A stretch of DNA of 59,214 nucleotides from Scytonema sp. RU_4_4 (GTDB taxonomy: Bacteria; Cyanobacteriota; Cyanobacteriia; Cyanobacteriales; Nostocaceae): NCBI GenBank assembly GCA_012031965.1, contig JAAUSC010000013.1, forward strand, positions 1 through 59,214, given 5' to 3'. Each line of letters starts with the position of its first letter. The first letter of the stretch is position 1. Below, one piece after another: positions 10,900 to 18,620 of this stretch. The translations under genes were made by a program, and so were the position numbers. The notes beneath the pieces were generated by a model. That model made no database searches. It was given only the letters and a program-made list of their open reading frames with translations, and was not told the origin of the DNA.

Positions 10900-11157
10900 A
10901 TGGTTCGTGAGCTAGAAAAAAAACGTCAGAGTGCAAAATTTCCAGAAACTGCCCCAGCTGCCAATCCAGTGTTTTTTAGAACCTATAGCCGTCGTAAAGA
11001 GGCTGGGGTGAGAGAGACTTGGGAGCAGGTGTGCGATCGCACTCTTGAAGGCTTTATCACTATCGGGAAGTTACTTCCACACGAAGCTGAGACCCTACAA
11101 CGGATGCAGCGAAACTTGAAAGCATTACCCAGCGGACGTTGGTTATGGGTTGGCGGG
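10900..11157 (+). CDS. nrdJ: nrdJ exon 1
   Basis: Encodes residues 1-86, from ATG at 10900 to Gly86 (ending ALPSGRWLWVGG). In the unspliced sequence the frame meets a stop two codons into the intron. LPSGRWLWVGG normally continues with T-x-W-L and then NFSGAYNC in this family, which is exactly what exon 2 supplies. Confidence 0.9.
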
Positions 11158-14100
11158 GTGTGATTCGTTGAGTCGAAACTGGCTCCAGGAAAGGCTTTTA
11201 GCTAATCCTTAGCCTTGGGATGACTCTCCTGGTTCTTCAAAATCCGTTACAATATCCAAACGGAATACCGGAGGAATGATGTGCGGATTACCGAACCTTG
11301 ATAACTGTATAACCTTGTAGGTGATGTGGTGAAACACAAAGTCCTACCCTCCAAGCGTGGGAGTGAAAGCATTTCCCCTACCTAGCGACTGGTTCTCAAA
11401 GGGTAAAGCGGGGAAAAACGCTGGTAATACCAAACCATGAGGTAAATCCCAGCAAGCAAGAGCACATGGATAACAAAGTGAAGGTATGTCCGAACGGTCG
11501 TAATCCATAAGCAGCGAAAAGAATGGTTGATACGCTGCGGTCAAAATGACACTAAGACACATAGGAACCCGAAAGTACCTCCATAAAGGTCACGCTTTCC
11601 TGTCTTCGGCTGAGTAGTACCATCCTAAACGCTCAAATCAAAGGTTATACGGAACGAAGTAATCCTGTCTGTGGCTCTCTAAAAGGTCGATTTTAGAGTC
11701 GGTGCCAAACCGCAAGCCCTTGCAGGACGAGATGGAATCAGAAGCAAATGCCTACCTGTAATGGGTAAGGATAAGCTGACAGATTCCCGATGATTTGGAA
11801 GATGGAGTTTTGATTAGCAATTGATTATGACTAAAACACGGGAAAATCCGATGGTGGTATGGACACAAGTGAACTGGCGTAAGCTAGAACGCGCAGTGTA
11901 CAAGTTGCAAAAAAGAATCTATCTAGCCTCTGGTCGGGGAGATGTCAAAGCAGTGCGTAAATTGCAGAAGACTCTTCTGAATTCCTGGTCTGCCAAAATG
12001 CTTGCAGTCCGTAAGGTAACTCAGGATAATCAAGGTAAAAACACTGCGGGGGTAGATGGCAAGAAGGCTTTAACGCCTAAAGAATGCTCAGAACTGGTGA
12101 GAACACTAGAACTAAGCCATAAATCCAAAGCTACCCGTAGAGTATGGATTCCCAAACCTGGGAAAGCAGAAAAAAGACCCTTGGGCATCCCCACAATATC
12201 TGAACGGGCAAAACAAGCACTTGTGAAACTAACCTTGGAACCCGAATGGGAAGCCAAGTTTGAACCTAACAGCTACGGTTTCCGACCTGGTAGAAGCTGT
12301 ATGGATGCCATAGAGGGTATCAAAGTCGCAATCAAGCAAAAGAGCAAATATGTTCTGGATGCCGATATTGCAAAATGCTTTGACAAAATCGACCATGAGA
12401 AGCTGTTGAACAAAATCAACACATTCCCAAAACTTCGCAGACAGATTAAAGCTTGGCTGAAATCTGGTGTTTATGATAACGGAGCATGGTTTCCAACAGA
12501 TGAAGGAACCCCGCAAGGTGGTGTCATCTCACCACTACTGGCAAACATTGCTTTACATGGAATGGAAAAGATTGTCAAGGAATTTGCCCGAACTCTTCCA
12601 GGGAAAAAGGGTAATAACGAAAAGGAAATTACCATTATTAGGTACGCCGATGATTTCGTAATACTACATCCCAAACTGGATGTACTTATGAGAGCAAAGG
12701 CACTAATTGAAGAATTCCTTAAAGATATGGGTCTAGAACTCAGACCGGAAAAAACTCGTATAACTCATACCCTAGAGGAAGTAAGGAATGAAGCTCCAGG
12801 TTTCGATTTTCTTGGCTTTAACATCCGTCAATATCCAGTAGGAAAACACGCAACAGGTAAGAACACACATGGCATACCACTAGGTTATAAAACCTATGTA
12901 AAACCAAGTAAAAAGGCTGTCAAAGCTCATTATCAGCGATTAGCAGATGAAATTGACAAGTTAAAATCCTGTCAATCCCAAGTTGAGCTAATAAAGCGGT
13001 TAAGTCCAATCATCACTGGCTGGAGTCATTACTACTCCAAAGTTAATAGCGCTGAATCCTTTAAGGTACTTGACCACTTATTGACTATGAAGCTAATTGC
13101 ATGGGTTAAGGCTAGACACCTTCACAAGTCTACAAAACGGTGGATTGGGAAATATTTTGGCACAAAAGACAAATCATCCTGGGTATTTCGAGCAATTACG
13201 GAAGATAAGAACTTATATCTTACCTATCACAGTGATTTCCACATCCAGAAATTTGTCAAAGTCAAAGGGGAAGTAAGTCCATATAATGGCGACTTAACCT
13301 ACTGGGCTACCCGCATGGGAAAAAGTGCTGAATTACCTACCAGAGTCTCAAAATTGCTGAAAAAGCAAAATGGAAAATGCACAGAATGCAATGGGTACTT
13401 CAGAGATGGAGACGTAATGGAAGTAGACCATATCCTACCTCGTTCCAAAGGTGGAAAAGATGTCTATGAAAATTATCAACTATTACATCGGCACTGCCAT
13501 GACATCAAAACCAAACGAGACGGTACTCATGACAAGAGCCAAATCATTGAGGAGCCGTGTGATGCGAAAGTATCACGCACGGTTCTGAAGCCGAGTCACG
13601 TTGGCGATAGCGTGGCTTAGGGTAATACAGACTGGCTAAAAGAGCAAAAAAACTTTTCTGGGGCGTACAATTGTACGTCTACCAACCTGCAAGACTGGAG
13701 CGCTTTCGGGTTAATGATGGATTTGGCGATGATGGGCTGCGTGCGATTCGTTGGCTAGAAAGCAAGCCCAGTCAGGGTTTTGGAGGATCAGCCGCAAGGT
13801 AAATCTACCTTAACAAGTAAGAACCTTGACAACTTGATAGTCATGTTGGTGACATCGAAAGAAATCAAATGTCAGTACAGTTGAAATCATAGGAATATCC
13901 AATGGTAAACCTGGAAAGCATCACAATAATCGATGAAGTCCAACCCCCTAAGTGCAAGGGTGAAAGCACTTTCCCCACGGTAGCGACTAGCCATCAATCC
14001 GTGAAGCGGGAATGAACGGTGGTAAGAGGTCAGTCCAGACCTCAATCCCAACTAGCAAGAGAGTATGGTTAGCGAAAGCGAATCTACATCCGAATCATCG

Positions 14101-17100
14101 TGAGCATGTAAAACAGCCTAGTGGACTAACAGGCTGTGCCAAAAGGCAAGGGTAGAGTGACCGGAATCGCATCCGTTTCGGTCTGCACCACTCGTAACCC
14201 CGGTGAACAGTAGAAACCTAAACTCTCAACCAATGACTATCAGGAACGAAGTAACCACATAGTTTCTCTCAGGAAGGTCGATTTCTGAGTAGGTGCTAAC
14301 CGGATGAGCTATGTGGCGAGATTGAGTCAGAAGCTAATGCCTACAGTAATGTGTAGGATATGCTGACAGACTCACGGAAAACAGATATATGTAGGTACAA
14401 GTAGCAATGAAGACGACTAAAACGAGTTTCAAGACTACGGTGGTATGGAACACAATTAACTGGAAGAAAATCCAGCGAATTGTGTTCAAGTTGCAAAAGC
14501 GCATACACAAAGCTGCTCAACGTGGGGATGTCAAAGCGGTGCGACGACTCCAGAAGATTTTGATGAAATCCTGGTACGCCAAGCTTTTAGCAACGCGACA
14601 AGTGACCCAAGACAATCAAGGTAAGAAAACAGCAGGGGTTGATGGAGTGAAATCTCTCGGATACGCCCAACGTCTGGAACTAGCTAACAATTTAGGAACC
14701 AGGGGGAAGGTAAAACCAACCCGGAGAATCTGGATACCTAAGCTAGGAACAGATGAAAAGCGTCCCCTTGGAATTCCCGTAATGGCAGACAGAGCGAATC
14801 AAGCATTAGCTAAGTTCGCCCTAGAACCACAATGGGAAGCAAGATTCGAGCCAAACAGTTACGGGTTCAGACCAGGAAGGGCGACACACGATGCCATCGA
14901 AGCCATATACTTAGCAATACATTGTAAAGCTAAGTACGTGCTAGATGCTGATATATCCAAGTGCTTTGACAACATTGACCATCAAAAGCTACTGAACAAA
15001 CTAAACACATACCCATCCATGAGACGAATGATTCGTAACTGGCTAAAAGCTGGATTTATGGATGGACGCGATATGTTCCCGACTGAAACGGGTACACCAC
15101 AGGGAGGGGTAATTTCCCCACTACTGGCAAATATCGCACTCCACGGTATGGAAGAGGTCATCAAGGAATACGCAAACACCCTACCTACTCGTAGGAACTA
15201 TGGGAAAAAGCAGAACCCTTCGGGTTCACCAGTCGCCTCAACGGGGGGAACCCCCGCACGGCGCTGGATTCACCGCAACGCCCTCAGTTTGATTCGCTAC
15301 GCTGACGATTTCGTGATTATTCATGAAGACATCAATGTTGTGTTAGGGGCAAAAACCGTAATTGAAGGTTTCTTAAAAGACATCGGTTTGGAACTTAAGC
15401 CAAGCAAGACTAGAATTTGTCACACCTTTGAAGAATATGAAAGGGAACAACCTGGATTTGATTTGTTAGGTTTTAACATCCGACAATTTCCAGTCAACGA
15501 TGGGATGAGCGCAAAAGCGCCAAAAACAGGAAAAATTCTTGGATTCCAAACAATCATCCAACCAAGCAAGAAAGCGGTACAACGTCACTACAAGGCGATA
15601 TCTGATATCATTGACTCCCATAAAGCAGCGCCACAAAAAGTGCTGATACAGAGACTCAACCCTATCATCCAAGGATGGGCTAATTACTACTCGGCTGCTT
15701 GCTCAACAGATGCTTTCACCGGATTAAATCACATGATTTATACCAAGCTGACATCATGGGCAAGATACAGACACCCTAATAAAGGTTCTAAATGGGTAGC
15801 ACAGAAATACTGGATAACAGTAGATGGGGATAACTGGGTGTTTGGGTATACCAACCCAGAGACAGATGAAAGATATATCCTGTCAAAGCACACATGGACT
15901 AAGATTGTACGCCATATCAAGGTCAAAGGCGAAACCTCTCCATTTAACGGGGATTTTGTCTACTGGGGTTCAAGAACTGGAAAAAGTAAGGAGATTCCCT
16001 CTCTACTTGCAAAAATCCTTCACAAGCAGAAAGGAAAATGTGGTCACTGCGGTCTAACTTTTACAACAGAAGACCAAATCGAACTCGACCACATTATACC
16101 AATCAGCCTGGGCGGGAAAAGAAAGTTCGATAACATTCAAGCATTGCATAGACATTGCCATGACCAAAAGACAGCCAGAGATGGCAGTTTGAGCAGTTCC
16201 CATGACAAGGGTATGTTTTCTGAGGAGCCGGATGAGGTGAAAGTCTCATGTCCGGTTCTGAAGACGAGTAGCACTCGTGAGGGTGTTGCTTAGTTTAATG
16301 GTACTGGAGCAGTTTTAGAACCACAATATATCAACAAGTTGCCCCCCATTCGTAATCACCTTCATGTACAAGTGCAAGGTGAAATTGGTCTGACTCCTCC
16401 CAGTCAGCGTCGCGAGCACACAGAAGTCAAAATAGAAGGCAATATCGTCACTATTTACGTTGGAGATAGTCGTCAAGGTTGGGTGAAATCATATCAAAGC
16501 TTGTTGGAACTCTCAACTGATGAACGATTTTCACGACATATTCAAGTCATCATTGATATTAGTGACGTACGTCAAGCAGGAGAACCTCTCAACGGCTTTG
16601 GAGGCGTTGCTAATCCTGTAAAATTGCCTGGACTGTATGATCGTTGTGTATCTATCCTGAATAGAGCAGTAGGACGACAGTTAAATTCTGTTGAATGCTG
16701 TTTATTAATTGATGAAGCAGCTGTCACAATCGTTGCCGGAAATATTAGGCGATCAGCTGGTATGCGCCAAGGTTATAGTCAGGATAATTTGTTTGCAGAT
16801 GCTAAAGCAAATCTTTGGCAGCAAGATGAAAATGGTAACTGGCGCATTGATCCAGAACGTGATTCTCTGAGGATGGCAAACCATACAAGAGTTTTTCACC
16901 AAAAGCCAACATTAGAAGAATGTATTGCTGCTGTCCGCAAACAATACTACAGCGGAGAAGGTGCGATTCAGTGGGCTGGTGAAGCTGTCGCTAGAGCTAA
17001 TTGTGACCTCTTGAAAAATCATGAACAAAAAGTAGATTTTCTCAAGGCTTATGCTCTAGGAAAAGCGAAAGATTGGTTGCAAGAGAATTATCCTCAAATT

Positions 17101-18620
17101 GGTGAAAGTGAACGAGAGCATCGTTTGGCTCGTTACGGTTTAAACCCGTGTGGTAGATAATAATTTTGCCTCACGTTAAAAACCGGGAAAATTCAAGGAA
17201 GGCTAAGCAGAAAAGTGAGTTATTAGTTATTAATTGAATTTTGAAAAAAGACAATAGAATAACGACTCAATTAATAACTCATGACTGTATGCTAATCTTG
17301 AGCTAACCTTATCATTTAAAAGTTTAAGGTAGTGCAACGCATAGGGGTTGAACCTTTTCAGTGAATAGTACACAGTGATAACTGGTAATTGATAACTGAA
17401 GAGAATATAATACCCTCACGAGTCCCCGGCTACCAAATGGTAGAAAAGTTATGCTGAACTGAACTGGAATTGACCAGTTGTATCCCGACAATGGGTATGA
17501 GGGAAACCTCCAGAGCTAGAGGATAAAAAGCCTTTAGGATAACAAAATTGGAAATTATTGGCTCGAATTTTCACTGCAATTTAAGCGAGATTCACCTGAA
17601 TCAAATTGACCCAAATAACTACAAAGAACAAGAGGAGGCTTTCACTGCTGGTGCGCTTTCTGTAGCAGCACTTTTGCATCACAAATTTATTGAACACCGC
17701 TACCAATACAGCCGTGAATTAGACCCCATTGTCGGTGTTTCCTTTACTGGGTTGTTTGATTTCTTTGTCAAGGCTTTTGGGGTTGATTGGTTGCGCTGGT
17801 GGGAAAAAGGAAGACCTGCAAACGCGGAAGGATTGGCGTTTAAGCGTCAGGAGCAAGAATACTTAAGTTATTGGAAAGATATTGTGCATCGCGTTGTTTG
17901 GGATTACTGCGATCGCCACGGTATAAAACGTCCAAATCGCTGCACCACAGTTCAACCAAGCGGTACCAAGTCTTTGTTAACAGGTGCTAGCCCTGGATGG
18001 CATCCCCCTAAAGCACAAAGATTTCTACGTCGGATTACCTTCCGCAAAAATGACCCCGTAGCGTTGGCTTGTATTGACTACGGCTACAATGTCATACCCT
18101 CTCAATCAGACAAAGATGAACAGGGTAACTTGTTGAATGACCCGTTTGATGTGCGAGTCAGCGAATGGCTGGTGGAAATTCCCGTCGCTGTACCTTGGGC
18201 TGATTTACCAGGTGCTGATGAAATAGAAATCAGTCAATTTAGTGCGATCGCCCAAATGGATTTCTATATGCAGGTACAGAAATTTTATGTCACACATAAT
18301 ACCTCTGCCACTATTGAACTACGGGAACATGAAGTTGAAGCCTTAGGAACTCGGATATATGAAACTATCCGAGATGATGAAGGTTATATTAGTGCTGCAC
18401 TTCTAGCACGTTTTGACGACCTTCAAACTTTTCCCCGCTTACCTTTGAGCCAATAACAAAACAATGCTATGAACAGTTAATGAAAGAAGTGGAAATGCGT
18501 CGCAAAACCAAAGATTTTCATGCTGTTTTAAGCCGCTACGATTTCGGCGAGTTAATAGAAGCAGGACCAGCAGGTTGCGACTCTGATAAGTGCATGATGC
18601 CTGAACCGACCTTGATGTAA
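10900..18620 (+). CDS. nrdJ: Class II (B12-dependent) ribonucleotide reductase NrdJ, split by three introns
   Basis: Reduces ribonucleotides using adenosylcobalamin. Four exons are read here as 10900-11157, 13627-13740, 16300-17154 and 17551-18620. Joined, they give about 765 residues once one missing base near 18443 is restored. Active-site parts: GAYNC (Cys102), NPCGE (Cys408 thiyl-radical site, Glu410), FHC (Cys418) and the C-terminal CDSDKC redox pair (about 752/757). The last two cysteines lie after the frameshift and would be lost as the sequence stands. Both group II introns fall on codon boundaries; the third intron lies between Gly409 and Glu410. No intein is seen. Trichodesmium is known to carry group II introns and inteins in this gene, so the location is an established intron hotspot. 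Confidence 0.92.
11158..13626 (+). mobile_element. Group II intron 1 in nrdJ
   Basis: A 2469-nt intron starting with the group II consensus GTGYG (GTGTGATTCG) and ending in GGTAAT. Domain V is the 34-nt hairpin at 13552-13585 (GAGCCGTG...CACGGTTC with a GAAA-type tip). Domain VI follows, with a TCACG/CGTGG-type stem. About 670 nt of 5' RNA (domains I-III) precede the reverse-transcriptase ORF in domain IV. Splicing joins GGCGGG to ACAGACTGG and restores the reductase frame exactly. The intron is in sense orientation, as needed for splicing. Confidence 0.92.
11827..13620 (+). CDS. ltrA: Group II intron reverse transcriptase/maturase with HNH endonuclease (intron 1)
   Basis: A 597-residue intron-encoded protein for splicing and retrohoming. 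Order: N-terminal RT-0 region (WRKLERAVYKLQKRIY, TQDNQGKNTAGVDG), RT fingers/palm with YGFRPGRSCMDAIEGI, GTPQGGVISPLLANI and the catalytic YADD at about 273-276, the maturase X domain (RLSPIITGWSHYYS), then an HNH domain with CTEC near 518, DH near 535 and HRHCHD. All catalytic residues are present, so it looks intact. A TTG at 11821 is in frame; ATG 11827 is preferred. The ORF does not stop before domain V: its last 23 or so codons read through domains V and VI and end six bases before the splice site. Confidence 0.93.
   Translation: MTKTRENPMVVWTQVNWRKLERAVYKLQKRIYLASGRGDVKAVRKLQKTLLNSWSAKMLAVRKVTQDNQGKNTAGVDGKKALTPKECSELVRTLELSHKSKATRRVWIPKPGKAEKRPLGIPTISERAKQALVKLTLEPEWEAKFEPNSYGFRPGRSCMDAIEGIKVAIKQKSKYVLDADIAKCFDKIDHEKLLNKINTFPKLRRQIKAWLKSGVYDNGAWFPTDEGTPQGGVISPLLANIALHGMEKIVKEFARTLPGKKGNNEKEITIIRYADDFVILHPKLDVLMRAKALIEEFLKDMGLELRPEKTRITHTLEEVRNEAPGFDFLGFNIRQYPVGKHATGKNTHGIPLGYKTYVKPSKKAVKAHYQRLADEIDKLKSCQSQVELIKRLSPIITGWSHYYSKVNSAESFKVLDHLLTMKLIAWVKARHLHKSTKRWIGKYFGTKDKSSWVFRAITEDKNLYLTYHSDFHIQKFVKVKGEVSPYNGDLTYWATRMGKSAELPTRVSKLLKKQNGKCTECNGYFRDGDVMEVDHILPRSKGGKDVYENYQLLHRHCHDIKTKRDGTHDKSQIIEEPCDAKVSRTVLKPSHVGDSVA
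13627..13740 (+). CDS. nrdJ: nrdJ exon 2 (38 codons between two group II introns)
   Basis: Encodes TDWLKEQKNFSGAYNCTSTN and on to MMGC, residues 87-124, including Cys102, the equivalent of the active-site redox cysteine. It starts and ends on codon boundaries. It has no start of its own and can only be expressed by splicing. Confidence 0.92.
14407..16293 (+). CDS. ltrA: Group II intron reverse transcriptase/maturase with HNH endonuclease (intron 2)
   Basis: A 628-residue relative of the intron 1 protein with the same domain order: RT-0 (INWKKIQRIVFKLQKRIH), YGFRPGRATHDAIEAI, GTPQGGVISPLLANI, YADD near 298-301, X domain (RLNPIIQGWANYYS) and HNH (CGHCGLTF, ELDHIIPISLGGK, HRHCHD). Just before the YADD strand it carries about 22 extra residues (near 268-290, NPSGSPVASTGGTPARR) absent from the sister protein. 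They are encoded by a palindromic intergenic repeat (15211-15275). Whether the enzyme tolerates this is unknown; the frame stays open. Like intron 1, the ORF runs through domains V/VI and stops six bases before the splice site. Confidence 0.92.
   Translation: MKTTKTSFKTTVVWNTINWKKIQRIVFKLQKRIHKAAQRGDVKAVRRLQKILMKSWYAKLLATRQVTQDNQGKKTAGVDGVKSLGYAQRLELANNLGTRGKVKPTRRIWIPKLGTDEKRPLGIPVMADRANQALAKFALEPQWEARFEPNSYGFRPGRATHDAIEAIYLAIHCKAKYVLDADISKCFDNIDHQKLLNKLNTYPSMRRMIRNWLKAGFMDGRDMFPTETGTPQGGVISPLLANIALHGMEEVIKEYANTLPTRRNYGKKQNPSGSPVASTGGTPARRWIHRNALSLIRYADDFVIIHEDINVVLGAKTVIEGFLKDIGLELKPSKTRICHTFEEYEREQPGFDLLGFNIRQFPVNDGMSAKAPKTGKILGFQTIIQPSKKAVQRHYKAISDIIDSHKAAPQKVLIQRLNPIIQGWANYYSAACSTDAFTGLNHMIYTKLTSWARYRHPNKGSKWVAQKYWITVDGDNWVFGYTNPETDERYILSKHTWTKIVRHIKVKGETSPFNGDFVYWGSRTGKSKEIPSLLAKILHKQKGKCGHCGLTFTTEDQIELDHIIPISLGGKRKFDNIQALHRHCHDQKTARDGSLSSSHDKGMFSEEPDEVKVSCPVLKTSSTREGVA
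15211..15275. repeat. Palindromic repeat inserted in frame in maturase 2
   Basis: Contains ACCCTTCGGGTTC, CCAGTCGCC and GGGGGGAACCCCC in order, the same series of blocks as the intergenic repeat at 39489-39582 (ACCCTTACGGGTTCGCCAGTCGC ... GGGGGAAACCCCC). It adds about 22 codons to the reverse transcriptase without breaking the frame. Confidence 0.8.
16300..17154 (+). CDS. nrdJ: nrdJ exon 3
   Basis: Encodes residues 125-409, the large central part of the reductase (GTGAVLEPQYINKLPPIRNH, then GDSRQGW, GNIRRSAGMRQG and finally GLNPCG). In the unspliced sequence the frame runs two codons further and stops at 17158-17160. The last codon is Gly409, after the radical Cys408. Confidence 0.92.
17155..17550 (+). 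ncRNA. Putative group I intron in nrdJ (no ORF)
   Basis: A 396-nt insertion splits NPCG from EIIGSNFHC. It lacks GTGYG and any domain V, so it is not group II. Group I hallmarks: the 5' exon ends in U and the insertion ends in G. Exon CGTGTGGT (17147-17154) can pair with GCCTCACG (17168-17175) with one mismatch and a terminal U-G wobble, as in P1. The 3' exon GAAATT (17551-17556) can pair with AATTTT (17162-17167), directly 5' of that guide, as in P10. A catalytic core (P3-P8) was not traced with confidence. A long AT-rich hairpin (GTTATTAATTGA/TCAATTAATAAC) and a short tandem-repeat block near 17370-17400 probably sit in peripheral loops. Confidence 0.7.
17551..18620 (+). CDS. nrdJ: nrdJ exon 4, frameshifted near the 3' end
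   Basis: Encodes Glu410 to the C-terminus: FHCNLSEIHLNQIDP, TTVQPSGTKSLLTGASPGWHPP (substrate loop) and THNTSATIEL. Near 18443 the frame shifts: as given it ends in LPLSQ at 18456, but in the next frame it continues FEPITKQCYEQLMKEVEMRRK to CDSDKCMMPEPTLM, stopping at 18620. One missing base (probably a C in ACCTTTGAG) explains it. The lost part carries the CX4C pair that re-reduces the active site. Confidence 0.9.

What the first reader, a model, noticed from the sequence alone, without database searches (positions are those of the whole stretch)
10900..18620. nrdJ split by two kinds of self-splicing intron
One reductase gene carries two group II introns (GTGYG start, domain V hairpin, HNH-maturase each) and a third, ORF-less insertion with group I signs. 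All boundaries were set by restoring the protein frame. A 38-codon exon is trapped between the group II introns. Group II introns and inteins in Trichodesmium RNR genes are known, but a group II plus group I mix in one cyanobacterial nrdJ looks uncommon.
Basis: partly seen in the sequence, partly recalled or inferred. Interest (0 to 1): 0.9.

Follow-up and report, generated by a model that had tools for sequence, protein, structure and literature searches.

The report
Reductase gene with three self-splicing introns
A cyanobacterial gene for the enzyme that makes DNA building blocks is cut into four pieces by two group II introns and one group I intron; the reading is right, but the same introns sit at the same places in many relatives, so this is a new example of a known kind.

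Summary
Window 10900-18620 carries one class II ribonucleotide reductase gene, nrdJ, in four exons. Two group II introns (GTGYG start, domains V/VI, RT-maturase-HNH frame) follow codons 86 and 124. An ORF-less 396-nt intron follows codon 409, in the NPCG|E motif. Rfam barely sees this third one (E = 0.029); comparison shows that it is group I: 45 pairs of P1 and P3-P9 are formed in 99.6% of cells over 36 introns, 21 of them with double changes, plus the splice-site U.G pair and a 9-bp P10.

The rarity claim is weaker than thought. Of 217 genomes searched in the family, at least 96 carry this group I intron, at least 15 a group II intron at one of the same two sites, and at least 10 (window included) both kinds in one nrdJ. 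One other genome has both group II introns with the same 38-codon exon between them.

It may be an assembly error. Splicing itself was not shown. Verdict: new member of a known kind.

The parts
10900..11157 (+). nrdJ exon 1, codons 1-86 (ends ...WLWVGG)
   Evidence: ORF list, joined frame, congeners match from the same first residue
11158..13626 (+). Group II intron 1 (2469 nt), GTGTG...AT
   Evidence: Boundaries by frame; domain V/VI Rfam hits at 13549-13687; the same intron at the same site in relatives
11821..13620 (+). Intron-encoded protein 1: RT, maturase, HNH; YADD at residue 275 (ORF as listed from a TTG; an ATG lies two codons further on)
13549..13589 (+). Domain V of intron 1 (domain VI follows, to about 13626)
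   Evidence: RF04357 54.4 bits; RF00029 49.5 bits from 13550
13627..13740 (+). nrdJ exon 2, codons 87-124 (38 codons, TDWLKE...MMGC)
13741..16299 (+). Group II intron 2 (2559 nt), GTGCG...AT
   Evidence: Boundaries by frame; Rfam; the same intron at the same site in relatives
14407..16293 (+). Intron-encoded protein 2: RT, maturase, HNH; YADD at residue 298; 54% identical to IEP 1
16222..16262 (+). Domain V of intron 2 (domain VI follows, to 16299)
   Evidence: RF04357 65.9 bits; RF00029 59.4 bits
16300..17154 (+). nrdJ exon 3, codons 125-409 (GTGAVLE...NPCG)
17155..17550 (+). Group I intron (396 nt), ORF-less; exon U | intron ... G | exon
   Evidence: P1, P3-P9 covariation, P1 U.G and P10, RF00028 hits in some relatives
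17551..18456 (+). nrdJ exon 4, codons 410 onward, ending in an early in-frame stop
18447..18619 (+). C-terminal end of NrdJ (EPITKQ...CDSDKCMMPEPTLM), conserved but in a different frame from exon 4

Best explanation
The gene encodes the cell's B12-dependent class II ribonucleotide reductase. The transcript should be processed by three self-splicing events. The two group II introns (IEP class not tested) would leave by the branching pathway (bulged A of domain VI attacks the 5' site, lariat released), probably helped by their own RT-maturases, which with their HNH domains would also carry each intron into empty copies of its site. The group I intron would leave by the guanosine pathway: the 5' exon is held in P1 with its last U paired to G, guanosine binds in P7, and the 3' exon is positioned by P10. 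Each group II intron belongs to a lineage that recurs at exactly its own site in relatives, and the group I intron recurs at NPCG|E, so this gene holds three independent residents of conserved spots. Shown: sequence parts, structures, homologous sites. Inferred from established knowledge of the families: splicing in the cell, maturase dependence, homing.
For: Joined frame and TIGR02505 704.5 bits. Group II: domain V/VI hits, RVT_N, RVT_1, GIIM and HNH. In six fetched relatives with a site-86 intron the IEP is 78-90% identical to IEP 1 and 51-55% to IEP 2; in seven fetched relatives with a site-124 intron it is 79-86% to IEP 2 and 54-56% to IEP 1 (L173 counts in both sets; L171's IEP matches in two pieces). 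Group I: 36 introns, 45 pairs, 99.6% of cells paired, 21 pairs with double changes, covariation 0.406 against 0.143 shuffled and at most 0.090 slid. P1 with U.G in 40 of 40, P10 9 of 9 bp in the window. RF00028 at E 4e-5 to 9e-4 in 6 of 15 relatives' loci given. Alleles uninterrupted over codons 1-707 exist. No NrdB or NrdD family match in the own genome.
Against: No RNA data. The window's group I intron itself scores only 18.6 bits (gathering 50), the three congeners given to Rfam gave no hit at E <= 0.01, and the window has one A.C non-pair in P3 (columns printed). P10 has 5 or fewer of 9 pairs in 7 of 40 introns. For intron 1 the candidate EBS1-IBS1 pairing is unbroken over its five core pairs in 6 of 6 relatives but has a central C.U mismatch in the window. 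Other EBS/IBS runs are no longer than shuffles give (115 and 168 of 200). As assembled, even the spliced mRNA would lack the C-terminal cysteines in frame.
Confidence: 0.93

Rival explanations
1. The locus is a decaying nrdJ: introns are present but one or more no longer splice well, and the C-terminal frame shift is a real, disabling mutation.
For: One-base shift near 18444, seen in none of 6 congeners; EBS1-IBS1 mismatch in intron 1; one broken P3 pair.
Against: The only nrdJ found in the genome, and no NrdB or NrdD family match there (PF02867 gave no match either but also misses this nrdJ). Codons past the shift still look constrained: 11 differences in 173 nt from a congener, 8 of them at third positions. 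Both IEP frames are free of stops. Hence a recent event or, as likely, an assembly error.
Confidence: 0.12
2. The third insertion is not a ribozyme but a remnant (an intein scar, a repeat insertion or a mobile-element relic) that breaks the gene.
For: Rfam gives the window's copy only E = 0.029; it has an AT-rich inverted repeat.
Against: Catalytic core with compensatory changes in P3, P4, P5, P7 and P8 among others; exact removal restores NPCG|E; the intron is in at least 96 of 217 family genomes.
Confidence: 0.02
3. The two related group II introns also splice as one unit (5' site of intron 1 to 3' site of intron 2), skipping the 38-codon exon in frame and giving a second, inactive protein that tunes reductase level.
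For: Exon 2 is 114 nt, a multiple of three; the introns are relatives (IEPs 54% identical); the same double arrangement occurs in G098.
Against: No RNA data; 13 of the 15 genomes found with a group II intron here have only one of the two. Whether the two introns could share exon-binding sequences was not tested.
Confidence: 0.05

Closest known systems
Group I intron in the ribonucleotide reductase (RIR) gene of Nostoc punctiforme PCC 73102 (Meng et al. 2007, J Bacteriol 189:2150; known here only through passages of the review PMC12702839)
   Same: Group I intron in a cyanobacterial reductase gene of a related organism; probably the same intron family, since at least 96 of 217 genomes of the window's family have it at NPCG|E.
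   Different: By its title that intron holds an IS element; the window's copy has no ORF. Its site could not be compared: the paper is not held.
[quoted passage not shown] 2003, J Biol Chem 278:46826; seen only as a citation in PMC4649490)
   Same: Several self-splicing elements in one bacterial reductase gene, group II introns among them.
   Different: There inteins plus group II introns; here group II plus group I and no intein. In relatives of the window probable inteins sit near codons 275 and 408-417.
nrdJ of G098 (L173), same family
   Same: Both group II introns at the same two sites with the same 38-codon exon between them.
   Different: No group I intron: probable inteins near the NPCG site and near codon 275 instead.
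nrdJ of G004 (L112), same genus
   Same: Group II intron 1 (IEP 90% identical) and the same group I intron, 529 nt long there.
   Different: No intron at codon 124; an insertion of about 1.2 kb at codon ~275, probably an intein; C-terminal frame intact.

Membership tests
Group II intron (both) | GTGYG 5' end and AY 3' end | tested here: met
   GTGTG...AAT and GTGCG...AAT
Group II intron (both) | Domain V hairpin and domain VI | tested here: met
   RF00029 49.5 and 59.4 bits, gathering 40
Group II intron (both) | Retroelement IEP: RT + maturase (+ endonuclease) | tested here: met
   RVT_N, RVT_1, GIIM, HNH above cut-offs; TIGR04416 330 and 312 bits, cut-off 300
Group II intron (both) | EBS-IBS pairings with the 5' exon | tested here: inconclusive
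   Candidate EBS1 of intron 1 pairs and varies with the exon in 6 of 6 relatives but has a mismatch in the window; run lengths alone no better than shuffles
Group II intron (both) | IEP subclass (CL types are the common ones in cyanobacteria, PMC4424553 and PMC8919778) | not tested
   No IEP tree with reference classes was made
Group I intron (396 nt) | Conserved core P3, P4, P5, P6, P7, P8 | tested here: met
   36 sequences, 99.6% of cells paired, 21 of 45 pairs with double changes
Group I intron (396 nt) | P1 with U.G at the 5' splice site; intron ends in G | tested here: met
   40 of 40 introns
Group I intron (396 nt) | P10 with the 3' exon | tested here: met
   9 of 9 bp in the window; all 9 in 17 of 40 introns, at least 7 in 33 of 40, 5 or fewer in 7 of 40
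Group I intron (396 nt) | Match above Rfam's RF00028 gathering score | tested here: not met
   18.6 bits in the window; 29-34 bits in 6 of 15 relatives' loci given, none listed in the other 9 at E <= 0.01; gathering 50. This is a score cut-off of a generic model, not a structural feature
Group I intron (396 nt) | Guanosine-dependent self-splicing | not testable with these tools
   needs RNA
Group I, subgroup IA (recalled: extra P7.1/P7.2) | Extra stems between P7 and P3' | tested here: inconclusive
   Complementary arms seen by eye between P7 and P3' in the alignment (e.g. GAGAG/CUCUC); not counted formally
Class II monomeric RNR (NrdJ) | Family match above cut-off | tested here: met
   TIGR02505 704.5 bits, cut-off 340; solved relative 1L1L, E 8.3e-30
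Class II monomeric RNR (NrdJ) | C-terminal cysteine pair in frame | tested here: not met
   CDSDKC lies out of frame after a one-base shift near 18444; in frame in 6 of 6 congeners

The most novel reading that the evidence does not exclude
In both group II introns the maturase reading frame runs on through catalytic domains V and VI and stops 6 nt before the 3' splice site; 12 of 15 intron copies in this locus and 12 relatives were read, and 12 of those 12 stop at the same point. A ribosome finishing the maturase must unfold the ribozyme core, so translating the maturase and splicing that same RNA would exclude each other. That would be a built-in switch between 'make maturase' and 'make reductase' for the gene that sets DNA precursor supply.
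Probability: 0.08. Interest if true: 0.5.

Novelty: new member of a known kind. Interest (0 to 1): 0.3.

Why it matters
nrdJ in this cyanobacterial family is a meeting place for group I introns, group II introns and probable inteins, each tied to a fixed codon. Because relatives keep empty, singly filled and multiply filled versions, the family is a natural test of whether such elements only tolerate, or actively use, the most conserved codons of an essential enzyme. The window is one of two cases found among 217 genomes searched with both group II sites filled, and the only one of these two that also has the group I intron.

Tried and rejected
Rfam at its gathering threshold: no group I hit; the permissive search gave only E = 0.029, so comparison was used instead. 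EBS/IBS by run length: rejected as evidence, because shuffles reach the same length in 115 and 168 of 200 trials. PF02867 as a search for other reductases in the genome: uninformative, since it misses this nrdJ too. The primary papers (Meng 2007; the Arthrospira genome paper) are not held; they are cited from passages or reference lists only. An intein at the third site was rejected: stops right after the junction and ribozyme covariation. A covariance model was not built: the alignment (631 columns) exceeds the tool's stated limit. No structure prediction was run: it would not bear on splicing. The ~275 insertions of relatives were read as probable inteins from their open frames and not tested further.
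Full report
What is there. The window carries one nrdJ gene in four exons: 10900-11157, 13627-13740, 16300-17154 and 17551 onward. Joined, they read as one open frame whose product (707 residues given) scores 704.5 bits against TIGR02505, the adenosylcobalamin-dependent ribonucleoside-triphosphate reductase (cut-off 340). Its only relative at E <= 0.001 among solved structures is 1L1L. The breaks lie after codons 86, 124 and 409. The last is inside NPCG|E; in 1L1L numbering the cysteine of that motif is C408 (alignment), the radical cysteine by recall.

Group II introns. Insertions 1 (11158-13626, 2469 nt) and 2 (13741-16299, 2559 nt) begin GTGTG and GTGCG and end AAT. Both have domain V/VI matches above Rfam's gathering score and encode proteins with RVT_N, RVT_1, GIIM and HNH domains, YADD included. 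The two proteins are 54% identical. RF00029 was found above its gathering score in all 12 nrdJ loci of relatives that I gave (L112, L165-L175). At codon 86 the relatives' introns resemble IEP 1 (78-90% in the six fetched; L171's protein matches in two pieces, so it may be broken); at codon 124 they resemble IEP 2 (79-86% in the seven fetched; L173 counts in both sets). Two more distant cases, found in loci cut short: G176 (L143) matches IEP 1 best (49% over most of it), G216 (L144) matches IEP 2 best (72%). So each site has its own lineage. The own genome has 8 RF00029 matches, these two included, 7 over the cut-off.

Group I intron. Insertion 3 (17155-17550, 396 nt) holds no ORF of 60 aa or more. 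Rfam's model gives only E = 0.029. I fetched 46 loci of relatives (6 congeners; 40 others). In 39 an intron at the same codon could be cut out (253-896 nt, all ending in G); in 3 a probable intein sits there instead, and in 4 the second exon was not found in the stretch taken. With the window that is 40 introns. P1 pairs the 5' exon CGUGUGGU with GCCUCACG (one internal mismatch) and puts a U.G at the splice site in 40 of 40; P10 is 9 of 9 bp in the window and in 16 others, at least 7 in 33 of 40, 5 or fewer in 7 of 40. For the alignment 36 of the 40 were used; L111, L112, L163 and L181 were dropped for length. A structure of P1, P3, P4, P5, P6, P7, P8, P9 and one more 3' stem (45 pairs) is formed in 99.6% of 1620 cells. 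21 pairs change on both sides (shuffled mean 16.2, 0 of 500 as high), and the covariation score is 0.406 against 0.143 shuffled and at most 0.090 for slid partners. In P7, one pair is C-G in 19 and A-U in 17 sequences, and the next C-G in 16, G-C in 13 and A-U in 7. I wrote the structure with two of the aligned sequences in view (L168 and the window), which favours the percentage paired more than the double changes. RF00028 was found at E 4e-5 to 9e-4 in 6 of 15 loci given; the other 9, three congeners among them, gave no hit at E <= 0.01, and none reached the gathering score. The window's P3 has one A.C non-pair.

How common. I searched 217 genomes of the family, taken as Nostocaceae because named records such as Calothrix sp. 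NIES-4101 and Nostoc sp. RI_552 coincide with handles by position. 213 have an nrdJ match. An 18-base pattern at the start of the group I intron is in 85 of 217; in two of these (G042, G206) it lies on another contig than the nrdJ match, leaving 83, whose hits lie at the exon end near codon 409-413 given. Eleven further fetched introns carry a variant that the pattern misses, and a wider pattern adds G039 and G100 (beside the exon ends), so at least 96 of 217. In the order, that wider pattern is in 76 of 388 genomes drawn, over many families; I looked at 4 of these, all of one other family, and all 4 are at NPCG| of nrdJ. Group II introns at codon 86: G000, G004, G030, G098, G135, G165, G176, G187 (8). 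At codon 124: G000, G009, G032, G078, G098, G103, G112, G115, G216 (9). That is 15 genomes; both sites are filled only in G000 and G098. Group II and group I together: G000, G004, G009, G032, G103, G112, G115, G135, G165, G187 (10). These are lower bounds: G147, G183 and G191 have pieces that end early or lie on separate contigs, and genomes with two matches, whose list was cut, were not all read piece by piece.

The missed frame shift. Exon 4 as assembled stops at 18456 (LPLSQ*). The conserved end of NrdJ, with its CDSDKC cysteines, lies in another frame up to about 18619. The six congeners fetched read through. Past the shift the window differs from G004 at 11 of 173 nt, 8 at third codon positions, as expected if the end was under selection until recently. 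No other reductase was found: one nrdJ, no NrdB, no NrdD; PF02867 is uninformative here because it misses nrdJ itself. The assembly is a draft of 400 contigs, 96.6% complete. An assembly error and a very recent mutation are both open.

Weak points in intron 1. A candidate EBS1 at about +420 (ACCNCC) pairs with the last bases of exon 1; its five core pairs are unbroken in 6 of 6 relatives and follow the varying third codon base, but the window has C against U at that base. The sixth pair is formed in only 2 of the 6 relatives and not in the window. Candidate EBS2 runs of 10 and 8 bp are not longer than shuffles give.

Maturase frames through domain V. Of 15 group II copies in the 13 loci held, a script could follow the frame in 12; in 12 of 12 the maturase frame crosses domains V and VI and ends at a stop 69 nt past the start of domain V, which is 6 nt before the 3' splice site in the window. 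L166, L168 and L171 could not be followed, also on a second try. This may simply follow from the conserved RNA being stop-free in that frame. I found no statement of it in two search listings and in passages of two papers, which is not proof that it is unreported.

Literature. [quoted passage not shown] 2007 (not held). Another (PMC3984707, passages) names some cyanobacterial nrdE genes among protein genes with group I introns. [quoted passage not shown] Passages of PMC4853749, PMC1995217, PMC2814812 and PMC4227781 added nothing on nrdJ. Searches listed no paper whose title or abstract start speaks of both kinds of intron in one nrdJ, but the library holds open-licence papers only.

Verdict. 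Real, correctly read apart from its end, well supported by comparison, and a new member of a known kind.

Noticed in passing
window 18430-18619: One-base frame shift near 18444 in nrdJ exon 4: the conserved C-terminal ~57 codons with CDSDKC are out of frame; intact in 6 of 6 congeners. Assembly error, recent mutation or recoding.
   Followed up: partly
window 13549-13620 and 16222-16293: Both maturase reading frames run through domains V and VI and stop 6 nt before the 3' splice site; the same end point in 12 of 12 copies that could be followed, of 15.
   Followed up: partly
window 11151-11157 with 11577-11582: Candidate IBS1-EBS1 of intron 1 is unbroken over five core pairs and varies with the exon in 6 of 6 relatives but has a C.U mismatch in the window.
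   Followed up: partly
window 17219-17285: AT-rich inverted repeat in the P5 region of the group I intron; relatives' introns range from 253 to 896 nt, so the peripheral loops take up insertions.
   Followed up: partly
relatives, e.g. L112, L173, L174, L175: Other nrdJ alleles carry probable inteins near codons 275 and 408-417, the latter at the same motif as the group I intron: one site used by two unrelated kinds of element.
   Followed up: partly
L025, L026, L030 (7953-8018) and pieces in G010, G067, G195, G197 and others: Orphan copies of the first ~22-78 codons of nrdJ lie upstream of the gene or on other contigs in several genomes.
   Followed up: no
G122:C49:174405-174545: An orphan piece of nrdJ codons 79-125 with a stop inside, on another contig than the gene: possibly exon 2 with the end of a group II intron.
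   Followed up: no
L002, L005 (contig 363 of the own genome): Two further group II domain V matches about 3 kb apart on one contig; one lies by an IEP related to those in nrdJ (57-72% by piece), the other by a distant one (33-35%).
   Followed up: no
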